Source of the DNA: Psococerastis gibbosa
Taxonomy: Eukaryota > Arthropoda > Insecta > Psocodea > Psocidae
NCBI GenBank assembly: GCA_963971405.1
Contig: OZ020490.1
Coordinates: forward strand, 9,472,874 to 9,536,873
DNA length: 64,000 bases
Direction: 5' to 3'
The translations under genes and the position numbers were made by a program. Below are positions 22,469 through 53,892 of this stretch, piece after piece. The first letter of the stretch is position 1. Every line of letters starts with the position of its first letter. Under the pieces are notes generated by a model. That model searched no databases, had not been told where the DNA came from, and saw nothing but the letters and a program-made list of their open reading frames with translations.

Positions 22469-22781
22469 GGCGGGTCACTGGTCAATTTTACATAAAATTT
22501 GATGTTGGTCATTGACGGGAAATCATCAATGTAGCATTATTTATTTTTACACCTCATTCCACGTCTTGTCTTCAATAATTGATCATTTTTGTTTTCAATT
22601 TTTTCCAAATTTGTAAGTTGCCTTTCTTTTAATTTTATAGCTTAATTTATTAACAGCCGGCCGCCTTACCAAGTTGAATCCAGCGGACCAGAGCAGGTTC
22701 AAAGATGCAGATAACTTGGTAGTGTGCACAGTGCCGGTAGGGAAACATGGTAGGACTTGTCCTGGTCACCTCCGAACTAAT

Positions 22782-23006
22782 TAACCGAAATTAGAGGATA
22801 TGGAAAAAACTGGGCTTGGCGGGATTCGAACCCACGATCTACGCCTAACCGGGGCGTCATCTTAACCGCTGGACCACAAGCCCCGACAAGTCCAGTAAAT
22901 GCCAAATCCTCTACTTATGCTCTAATTGACATGATTCGAGGTTACCTCTTCAACCAAAGTTAATTTAATGTCAGTGTTATATATACCATATAATACTACA
23001 ATGTAA
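22782..23006 (-). mobile_element. Element E, copy 1 (tRNA-bearing short element)
   Basis: The 225-bp insertion in D is flanked by TCCGAACTAAT at 22771-22781 and 23007-23017; the D copies at 39719 and 63641 lack it. On the minus strand it has about 120 bases of leader, then a 72-nt tRNA-like domain, a T6 run and a short tail CCATATCCTCTAATTTCGG. Target duplication length differs from copy 2 (9 bp). Confidence 0.8.
22812..22883 (-). tRNA. tRNA-like cloverleaf within element E
   Basis: The minus strand folds completely: acceptor GGGCTTG with CAAGCCC (7/7), D stem GTC with GAT (one wobble), anticodon stem ACGCC with GGCGT (5/5), 5-base variable loop AGATC, T stem GTGGG with CCCGC (one wobble), T loop TTCGAAT, discriminator A, then AG-T6. 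A box TGGTCCAGCGG and B box GGTTCGAATCC are perfect. The 7-base anticodon loop CCGGTTA has C instead of U at position 33, so a working tRNA is doubtful; identity is not assigned. Confidence 0.7.
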
Positions 23007-23437
23007 TCCGAACTAATCGTGTGACTTCACTGTGTTTCCCAAGTGGTTCGGAATCCACTATAATCAGGAGGTCCAATGTCCTATGGGCCCACACCGTGGC
23101 CTGGGACTGTGTACAACCAAACTACTACTACTAATCTATTAACAATAAATTTTATGATTTAAATTACGAAATAATTCGTTCGTTTTCAAGAAATTAATTT
23201 GAATTATTTATCATCTCTAGACGACGCCATTGTTTAATTTAATTTGTTATTATAAAAATGGAATACCCGCTTTCAACAAACATCTCATCAATTATTGATG
23301 CACAAATGACGGAATATTGACAAGTGGAATAGACGCATAACAAAGGTGCATATATTTATAAAAATTGGCGGTACAGTTCAATTTTTCAAGTCCAAAATTA
23401 TAATAAGTTTTAAGTACAAGTAGGTAACAGAATTCAC

Positions 23438-26731: not shown

Positions 26732-27225
26732 CATGCCAAGTTTAATCAGCTTGAATAGAGCCTGTTCATAACAACAGCAAATTTGGTAGTGTGCACAGCT
26801 TTGGCAGAGGGACATAGTGTGGCCTGAAAACATTGCCAGTAAGGCCCTTATTCCAAAGACGTCAATAGTTCACTATTGACGTGTTTGACGTGGTAGCAGA
26901 TCATTTTTACACTGTCTTTAATGTCTGCTACCACGTCAAACACGTCAATAGTGAACTATTGACGTCGGTGGAATATGGCCTTTTTTTAAAGAGCCTGTTG
27001 AGTCGTGGCCACTCCCAAATTAATTGTGTGACTTGCTTTTACTATGTTCCCAAATGGTTCGGAATCCACTATAACAGGTGGTCCACCCTATCAATCAACT
27101 ACCCAGTCAGCCCTTCTCCCTGAGGTGAAGGAGTCTGCCCCTAAGATGCCTCAAGTTAATAAACAGACTCACTCCCCCGCCAGACAGACAGCTGGTTGCT
27201 TAAGGCAGAAATGCTGAAAGACACC
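26732..27225 (+). mobile_element. Element D, long type, split by a palindromic MITE
   Basis: Blocks ATGCCAAGTTTAATCAGC, GGTAGTGTGCACAGC, then after the insertion CCAAATGGTTCGGAATCCAC, AATAAACAGACTCACTCCCC and GGCAGAAATGCTGAAAG. The middle is altered around the MITE at 26843-26980. Confidence 0.68.
26843..26980. mobile_element. Short palindromic MITE related to HARB-A
   Basis: Arms of about 60 bp begin GGCCCTTATTCCA and end TGGAATATGGCC. Each contains a smaller palindrome CGTCAATAGTTCACTATTG and then GACGTGGTAGCAGA, a block from the HARB-A arms. A loop of about 20 bases remains. Left flank TAA, right flank TTT. It could be HARB-A reduced to its arms. Confidence 0.7.
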
Positions 27226-27441
27226 GGCCACCTCAAGACTAGGGTCTATTTGCAACCCTATTTGCCTACAAACATAGGCGCAAATTCATAGATTTTGACC
27301 CACTTTTGAATAATGTAGGGACTGCAGTGGTTTAGCAAATTTTTGATTTTGGAGACAAAACATATCCTTGTAATGAAGAGGGTCCTCTGGGGTCTCCCCT
27401 GGGAGAAATGGTTCTTTTACACATTTTTAGCATATTTCACA

Positions 27442-27648
27442 GAAACCGAAATTAGAGGATATGGAAAAAACTGGGCTTGGCGGGATTCGAACCCACGATC
27501 TACGCCTAACCGGGCTGTCGTCTTAACCGCTGGACCAGAAGCCCATTTCCATATCCTCTAATTTCGGTTATAACGAGGAGGTTACCTCTTGAACCAAAGT
27601 TAATTTAATGTCAGTGTTATACTGTATATACCATATAATACTACAATG
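27442..27648 (-). mobile_element. Element E, copy 2, with 24-bp flanking palindrome
   Basis: The 207-bp insertion is flanked by TATTTCACA at 27433-27441 and 27649-27657. The tRNA-like domain is framed by perfect inverted arms at 27444-27467 and 27546-27569 (AACCGAAATTAGAGGATATG and inverse). The leader half (AACACTGACATTAAATTAAC on the minus strand) matches copy 1 closely. Confidence 0.8.
27473..27544 (-). tRNA. tRNA-like domain of element E, copy 2 (decayed)
   Basis: Same 72-nt length and perfect A and B boxes as 22812-22883. The last acceptor pair is C-C and the anticodon stem is broken (ACAGC with GGCGT). Copy 1 is therefore closer to a functional fold. Confidence 0.65.
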
Positions 27649-27676
27649 TATTTCACACAAAAATTGATCTGAGTCT

Positions 27677-27824
27677 GCCATTATAGGCTGTCGCCATAGA
27701 CTACCGCCATAGGCTGGTGCCATAGGCTGGTGCCATAGGCTGGTGCCATAGGCTGGTGCCATAGGCTGGTGCCATAGGCTGGTGCCATAGGTTGGCGCCA
27801 TAAGCTGCCACTATAGCCTGCAGC
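27677..27824. repeat. 13-bp minisatellite
   Basis: The unit GCCATAGGCTGGT is repeated about 11 times, perfect in the middle (27715-27788) and degenerate at both ends. It starts some 20 bp after element E. Confidence 0.9.
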
Positions 27825-39705: not shown

Positions 39706-40319
39706 ACCGGTACAGATAGTAGTATGGTTGGACATGGACACAGTCCCAGGCCACGGTGTGGGCCCATAGGACAGTGGACCTCCTGATTATAGTGGATTCC
39801 GAACCACTTGGGAAACACAGTTAAGTCACACGATTAGTTCGGAGGTGACCAGGACAAGTCCTACCATGTTTCCCTACCGGCACTATGCACACGAGCAAGT
39901 TATCTGCATCTTTGAACCTGCTCTGGTCCGCTGGATTCAACTTGGTAAGGCGGCCGGCTGTTAATAAATTAAGTTATAAAATTAAAAGAAAGGCAACTTA
40001 CAAATTTGGAAAAAATTGAAAACAAAAATGATCAATTATTGAAGACAAGACGTGGAATGAGGTGTAAAAATTAATAATGCTACATTGATGATTTCCCGTC
40101 AATGACCAAATCAAATTTTAAGTAAAATTGACCAGTGACCCGCCTTACTCTATGTCATTGTCCATTTTCATTTCCGCATGTGAAAATTGATCAATGATCA
40201 TAGAGTAAAATCACGCTTTGCAAACAATAACAAACAAAAATTAAACAGTGGCGTCGTCTGGAGATGATAAATAATTGTAGTTAATTTCTTGATAATTTCT
40301 TTCATAACCGGTACAGATA
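39706..40319 (-). mobile_element. Composite retrocopy: HARB-M sequence joined to element D
   Basis: The 588-bp insert (39719-40306) is flanked by ACCGGTACAGATA at 39706-39718 and 40307-40319. Read on the minus strand it starts inside HARB-M (TTATGAAAGAA), crosses two HARB-M copies in the same tandem order as 22304-22655, enters D at exactly the same junction (TTATTAACA/GCCGGCCGCC) and ends at the D tail ACCATACTAC. This is an RNA-mediated copy of an M-M-D locus, with D supplying the 3' end. E is absent. Confidence 0.8.
39719..39958 (-). mobile_element. Element D, short type, within the composite
   Basis: The inverse of 22656-23136 without E. CCTCCGAACTAATCGTGTGA appears intact on the minus strand, giving the empty site for E. 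Confidence 0.8.
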
Positions 40320-53844: not shown

Positions 53845-53892
53845 ATCGAACCCGCCAAATCCAGTTTTTTGTACATCCTCTAATTCCGGTTG
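53845..53892 (+). mobile_element. Element E, 3' end fragment
   Basis: ATCGAACCCGCCAAATCCAG, T6, then ACATCCTCTAATTCCGGTT match the T arm, acceptor, terminator and tail of E. A third, decayed copy, on the plus strand. Confidence 0.6.

What the first reader, a model, noticed from the sequence alone, without database searches (positions are those of the whole stretch)
22782..23006. Short mobile element carrying a complete tRNA-like cloverleaf near its 3' side (element E)
Seen: insertion inside D with an 11-bp direct repeat, a second copy at 27442-27648 with a 9-bp one, a third fragment at 53845. Each full copy has about 100-120 bp of leader, a 72-nt tRNA-like domain with perfect A and B boxes, and a short tail CCATATCCTCTAATTTCGG; copy 1 and the fragment have a T6 run after the tRNA. 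Known: tRNA-derived SINEs have the tRNA at the 5' end, because pol III starts there. Here the leader lies upstream and a pol III stop lies before the tail, so a pol III transcript could not copy the whole unit. Either it moves as a DNA element (Mutator-like elements give 9-11 bp duplications) or by a pol II or read-through RNA.
Basis: partly seen in the sequence, partly recalled or inferred. Interest (0 to 1): 0.75.

Follow-up and report, generated by a model that had tools for sequence, protein, structure and literature searches.

The report
Penelope-type tandem retroelement carrying a tRNA
The two short inserts are small pieces of a recently active jumping-RNA family whose 323-base unit contains a tRNA-shaped fold and which inserts like Penelope-type retrotransposons: in the complete copies examined, one DNA copy from each of two fixed start points is joined head to head.

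Summary
The insert is real: 22782-23006 with an exact 11-bp duplication, an empty site in the same window, a second copy (27442-27648, 9 bp) and an X-end fragment (53846-53885). But "leader-tRNA-tail" is not the element's own order. The parent is a 323-bp unit, often head to tail (up to seven identical units in a row), with the tRNA in sense. The window copies are head-to-head junctions of two oppositely oriented cDNAs; the "leader" belongs to the inverted one. Of 49 distinct insertions, 38 have both ends defined, and 38 of 38 pair one end "X" with one end "Y"; 33 have 9-16 bp duplications (mode 12). An autonomous Penelope-like element (PLE) of this genome, with RT and GIY-YIG domains, has a short and a tailed end: 35 of 38 listed head-to-head pairs combine one of each. 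Y-side cDNAs stop at X more often than chance, as if both started on one RNA. I read the element as a PLE-driven, non-autonomous, retrozyme-like tandem retroelement with a tRNA cloverleaf and no hammerhead ribozyme. The Mutator-like reading fails. No PLE with E's own ends was found, and the tRNA's role is open.

The parts
22771..22781 (+). target duplication, left copy (TCCGAACTAAT)
22782..22938 (-). X-side arm of copy 1: unit positions U172 to the X end, tRNA sense on the minus strand
22804..22809 (-). T6 run (pol III terminator-like) directly after the tRNA
22811..22883 (-). tRNA-Thr(GGT)-like cloverleaf of copy 1
   Evidence: ARAGORN; Rfam tRNA 55.2 bits
22938..23006 (+).
23007..23017 (+). 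target duplication, right copy
27433..27441 (+). target duplication of copy 2 (TATTTCACA), left
27442..27544 (-). X-side arm of copy 2 (U227 to the X end)
27465..27470 (-). T6 run after the tRNA of copy 2
27471..27545 (-). tRNA-Thr(GGT)-like cloverleaf of copy 2
27546..27648 (+). Y-side arm of copy 2 (from U304 through the X site to the Y end); its X-site sequence 27546-27569 forms a 24-bp inverted repeat with 27444-27467
27649..27657 (+). target duplication of copy 2, right
39769..39903 (-). paralogue of the host repeat D without the insertion: pre-insertion site, single TSD copy at 39833-39843
53846..53885 (+). 5'-truncated X-end fragment (U281-321, 85%), from the tRNA T arm through the T6 run (53865-53870)

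Best explanation
Element E is a non-autonomous, RNA-copied retroelement moved by a Penelope-type (PLE) reverse transcriptase/endonuclease. Its RNA is a multimer, or a circle read round, of a 323-nt non-coding unit with a tRNA cloverleaf about 20 nt before the X site. The enzyme cuts both target strands about 12 bp apart. One DNA end primes at X and the other at Y, about 82 nt further 3'. Both cDNAs copy the sense RNA and meet head to head through microhomology or a few extra bases. Shown: unit, tandem and inverted architecture, TSDs, X+Y pairing, junctions that differ in nearly every insertion, and the same pairing in a resident PLE. Inferred: that a PLE enzyme acts on E, that one RNA serves both starts, circular or multimeric RNA. 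Guessed: the tRNA is a structural handle beside X.
For: 323-bp units repeated head to tail, 100% identical within L009, and seven consecutive units of 100% on C2. 38 of 38 two-ended insertions are X+Y, 33 with TSDs of 9-16 bp, mode 12. Of 38 junctions analysed, 24 have at least 1 nt of microhomology, 2 are blunt and 12 have extra bases. Y-side cDNAs stop at the X site (U310-U20) in 17 of 38, X-side in 4 of 38, Fisher p=0.0017. A resident PLE family with RVT_1 (4e-13) and GIY-YIG (6e-5) has a short and a tailed end; 35 of 38 head-to-head pairs among the listed ends are one of each, and both copies checked have 12-bp TSDs. L054 is an X-only insertion with an 11-bp TSD and L101 a Y-only one of about 22-24 bp with an 11-bp TSD read by eye, as expected of target-primed copying with 5' truncation. 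In vitro a PLE cuts and extends both strands and starts RT at two internal RNA sites (PMC11167929). Diagnostic variants are uniform within an insertion: 149C in 4 insertions, 299G in 4, no mixed case seen (its lists of mixed positions for L017 and L018 are cut at 25).
Against: No PLE sharing E's X or Y end was found: 14 sampled Y sites with other upstream sequence look like E pieces or junctions, but only 211-291 bp of each was read, and alignment of the unit with the resident PLE's pLTR is not significant (23 of 200 shuffles score as high). Only 13 of the GIY-YIG loci behind the 48 matches were read. E lacks a hammerhead core (no Rfam hammerhead at E<=1). Pairing is not absolute: 9 of 49 copies are one-ended, L022 may be X/X-like, and the PLE itself shows 2 short-short and 1 tail-tail pair. 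Partly shared variant positions (228) outnumber fully shared ones (32). Most E loci were chosen as close matches or multi-piece hits, and the intervals for cDNA stops were chosen after seeing the data.
Confidence: 0.78

Rival explanations
1. E is moved by a LINE-type enzyme, and the head-to-head copies come from LINE twin priming with an unusually fixed internal priming site.
For: Twin priming gives 5' inversions with microhomology and 5' truncations (recalled); E shows both. No partner PLE for E was found.
Against: The internal priming site is fixed at X in all 38 two-ended copies. The X/Y rule and 12-bp TSDs match the resident PLE. Tandem multimers are a described PLE trait (PMC11167929).
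Confidence: 0.12
2. E is a DNA transposon or MITE (Mutator-like) with ends X and Y as degenerate terminal repeats.
For: 9-12 bp TSDs are common; X and Y share CCATAT about 15 nt from the end (by eye); copy 2 has a 24-bp perfect inverted repeat.
Against: Internal junctions are unique to nearly every insertion, with lengths from 203 to 2,676 bp, one-ended truncated copies with TSD (L054, L101), and a run of seven identical units.
Confidence: 0.04
3. E is a tRNA-derived SINE transcribed by pol III whose copies were rearranged after insertion.
For: tRNA fold with A and B boxes; 82 of 90 full tRNA copies still called tRNA-Thr.
Against: Both ends lie beyond the T6 stop (X about 17 nt, Y about 100 nt further); the tRNA is not at an end; TSDs enclose the inverted structure, so it was made at insertion.
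Confidence: 0.04

Closest known systems
Penelope-like elements (Penelope/Poseidon clade, e.g. PAc of Anolis; Adineta vaga Penelope)
   Same: Partial tandems, head-to-head inverted arms, short TSDs (8-10 bp cited for Adineta; 12 bp in two PLE copies here; mode 12 in E), two RT start sites giving short and 'tailed' ends
   Different: E codes for nothing (longest open run 76 aa), its tail is about 82 nt instead of 30-40 in the papers and about 44 in the resident PLE, it has no hammerhead, and it carries a tRNA cloverleaf
Metazoan non-LTR retrozymes
   Same: Non-coding tandem units of about 150-450 bp with GC below 50% (E: 323 bp, 42%), TSDs longer than 4 bp, PLEs suspected as movers (PMC7229834, PMC7761336, passages)
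   Different: Retrozymes are defined by hammerheads that make circular RNA; E has none and a tRNA instead
tRNA-derived SINEs
   Same: Short, non-coding, many copies, a tRNA-like domain with A and B boxes
   Different: tRNA near one internal RT start, not at the 5' head; the template must run through the pol III stop; tandem and inverted copies (SINE traits recalled)

Membership tests
PLE-mobilised element | tandem or partial-tandem units | tested here: met
PLE-mobilised element | head-to-head inverted arms inside one TSD | tested here: met
   33 of 38 two-ended insertions with TSD, mode 12 bp
PLE-mobilised element | two RT start sites giving one short and one tailed end | tested here: met
   E 38 of 38, 4 of 4 in an exact end-pattern sample; resident PLE 35 of 38
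PLE-mobilised element | ends shared with an autonomous PLE | tested here: inconclusive
   no match in the 13 PLE loci read and no PLE seen at 14 sampled Y sites (211-291 bp each); most GIY-YIG loci were not read
PLE-mobilised element | own RT and GIY-YIG ORF (autonomous member) | tested here: not met
   longest stop-free run in the tripled unit 76 aa: non-autonomous at best
Metazoan retrozyme | type I hammerhead ribozyme | tested here: not met
   no CTGANGA core on either strand; no Rfam hammerhead at E<=1 in L001, L009, L010, L024
Metazoan retrozyme | circular RNA intermediate | not testable with these tools
   no RNA data; within-insertion homogeneity of diagnostic variants fits a circle or a homogeneous multimer
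tRNA-derived SINE | tRNA head at the 5' end, whole unit transcribed by pol III | tested here: not met
   both ends lie past T6; arms inverted
Mutator-like element or MITE | fixed terminal inverted repeats around a common interior | tested here: not met
   variable junctions and lengths

The most novel reading that the evidence does not exclude
A retrozyme-like class in which a tRNA cloverleaf stands where the hammerhead would be: a PLE-dependent multimeric or circular RNA whose tRNA recruits host tRNA processing or positions the RT. A PLE dimer holds one RNA at two sites and primes one on each cut strand, so each complete insertion carries one short and one tailed end.
Probability: 0.35. Interest if true: 0.78.

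Novelty: new variant of a known kind. Interest (0 to 1): 0.62.

Why it matters
How Penelope elements integrate, and why their copies are inverted head to head, is unsettled: the 2013 Adineta paper favoured self-priming on an antisense template without excluding a sense one, and the 2024 Anolis paper left the later steps open. About eighty two-ended insertions here (42 of E, 38 of the PLE) show a countable rule, one start site of each kind per insertion, with the Y-primed copy of E often stopping where the X-primed one began. That argues for paired priming on a sense RNA and can be tested in vitro. It also shows a tandem parasite of this kind without a hammerhead and with a tRNA.

Tried and rejected
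Homology of E's unit to the resident PLE's pLTR: a shared 14-mer (3 of 2000 shuffles as long) is a variant of one copy, L089; L090 and the five copies that cover the place (L109, L111, L112, L113, L115) have another base there, and full alignment is not significant. Rejected.

Constraint on the tRNA: a first count looked lower (44 of 5792 non-CpG sites changed, against 237 of 19592 when I sum four other regions), but counting each variant once per insertion (L013, L017, L018 left out) gives 29 of 2576 against 158 of 10481, p=0.16. Not supported.

Origin of the tRNA: 20 of the 50 tRNA matches were fetched. The best match (69 of 73, L125) is itself an E copy, since an E tRNA lies 332 bp away. 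The next, L134 (61 of 73), is probably an E relative (inferred, flanks not read). Of the other 18 the best is tRNA-Thr(AGT), 52 of 73. Origin unresolved.

RNase P or Z footprints: I saw no clear excess of cDNA breakpoints at the tRNA 5' end (not tested formally). Six of 76 fall at U298-U305 (tRNA 3' end and T6), a weak lead seen after the fact.

Hammerhead in E: none. Target motif oriented by X and Y: I saw only AT-richness (TSD 69% AT, flanks 67%, 33 sites).

Full report
Setting. The window is G000:C15:9472874-9536873 of an unnamed 409-Mb genome; the hits lie on ten contigs of 12-54 Mb. I take it to be an animal (inferred). Copy 1 is 22782-23006, flush between two 11-bp target copies, and the window holds the pre-insertion site. 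Copy 2 and the fragment are confirmed.

Anatomy. Querying the genome with copy 1 gave 96 matches, many of them in pieces of alternating orientation. U runs: Y region (ends CTACAATGTAA, U82), a middle of about 140 bp, tRNA (U226-298), T6 (U301-306), then CCATATCCTCTAATTTC and the X end. The 323-bp query had 3138 first-look candidates; of 40 scored, one locus (C2:27717636-27720311) has seven consecutive identical units. U codes for nothing (longest open run 76 aa) and is 42% GC.

Ends. 88 loci reduce to 48 distinct insertions (40 were repeat views, dropped); window copy 2 makes 49. 38 have two defined ends: 38 of 38 are X+Y (17 X-left and 16 Y-left with TSD, 5 without). L017 and L018 share flanks and are probably one event, so 37 are independent. 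L022 is ambiguous (X, and an end 18 nt past X), L023 is X plus a shortened Y, and 9 are one-ended, one of them with a TSD. TSDs of the two-ended: 33, of 9-16 bp, mode 12. These loci were top matches or multi-piece hits, so I also listed exact ends by pattern: among the first 100 X ends (of 595) and the 53 of 100 listed Y ends (of 241) that fall in the same stretch, 4 head-to-head pairs were found, 4 of 4 X+Y, and no X-X pair within 6 kb among those 100. One Y-Y neighbour pair 5.4 kb apart has the same orientation and is not a head-to-head pair.

The Penelope link. GIY-YIG gave 48 matches, of 150 scored. L089 and L090 are PLEs: RVT_1 4e-13 and GIY-YIG 6e-5 in L090, inverted arms in both and 12-bp TSDs in both. 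The family has a short end and an end with a tail of about 44 nt; genome-wide there are 778 exact tailed and 724 exact short ends. Of the first 100 listed of each, 38 adjacent outward-facing pairs lie within 6 kb: 35 short+tailed, 2 short-short, 1 tail-tail. With random pairing about half would be mixed (binomial about 3e-8, my arithmetic; the shuffle count tested only the case of all pairs mixed, which is not what was observed). Five other close neighbour pairs were not outward-facing. E thus follows the rule of a PLE recently active in the same genome. A second PLE family (L092, L093) has a hammerhead-like motif with the canonical core.

How the copy is made. One search parsed 40 junctions; L013 and L018 were left out as shared with L014 and L017, leaving 38 (this set includes L022 and L023, so it is not the same 38 as above). 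For these I mapped where each cDNA stops on U, read as a circle. Y-side cDNAs stop at U310-U20, the X site, in 17 of 38 (one of the 17 is the ambiguous L022), X-side cDNAs in 4 of 38 (p=0.0017). X-side cDNAs stop at U153-190, by a predicted hairpin, in 15 of 38, Y-side in 5 (p=0.018). Both intervals were chosen after seeing the data. The first pattern fits a Y-primed enzyme running into the place where an X-primed one began on the same RNA. Junctions: 24 with microhomology, 2 blunt, 12 with extra bases. L054 (X only, 11-bp TSD) and L101 (about 22-24 bp of Y, 11-bp TSD read by eye) suggest that one start is enough for an insertion.

Template. Every X end lies past T6 and every Y end further, so RNA ending at the pol III stop cannot be the template. 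Units in one insertion share diagnostic variants (149C: 4 insertions, one covered eight times; 299G: 4; no mixed case seen), and private variants are shared in several others (L011, L012, L019, L023, L051, L057, L083). Against this, over 8931 positions covered more than once, 228 varying positions are only partly shared and 32 fully; many of the former are changes or gaps in one segment, which later mutation would give, but I did not sort them all. This fits rolling copying of a circle or transcripts of homogeneous arrays, and does not tell them apart.

The tRNA. ARAGORN calls tRNA-Thr for 82 of 90 full copies; 51 of 90 are identical. Folding the unit places the cloverleaf region in a longer stem whose 3' strand is the X-end sequence. 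No host tRNA parent was found, and no constraint was detectable. The role is unproven.

Literature seen: PMC11167929 (whole-text parts 1 and 2 of 4, and passages), PMC3846280 (passages and Discussion), PMC7761336 and PMC7229834 (passages); the rest in search listings only. Searches for a tRNA-bearing PLE-moved element or retrozyme listed none that I recognised from title and abstract start; the library lacks most subscription papers, and Repbase was not searchable.

Noticed in passing
L089, L090; ends genome-wide: A recently active autonomous Penelope-like family with hundreds of exact ends; 30 of the 38 head-to-head pairs are under 1 kb, so many copies are only inverted end pieces. It has a hammerhead-like motif CTGTAGA...GAAA, one base off the core, but no Rfam match at E<=1 in L089 or L090.
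   Followed up: partly
L092 372-394, L093 (sense strand 360): A second PLE family with a hammerhead-like CTGATGATGGTGTAACACCGAAA in its 3' part; not scanned with Rfam.
   Followed up: no
window 26841-26983; L009 946-1088: A foldback (palindromic) element, 60-nt arms 92% complementary, inside a D-like repeat; a similar one near the L009 insertion scores on microRNA models far below their gathering scores.
   Followed up: no
window 27683-27807: 13-bp tandem repeat, 9.6 copies, just beside copy 2.
   Followed up: no
L013 and L014: Same hairpin-stem junction at two loci with different target duplications: a recurrent template-switch hotspot or a copied junction.
   Followed up: partly
junction breakpoints at U298-U305: 6 of 76 cDNA breakpoints at the tRNA 3' end and T6, about 1.9 expected by my arithmetic; possibly tRNA 3' processing.
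   Followed up: no
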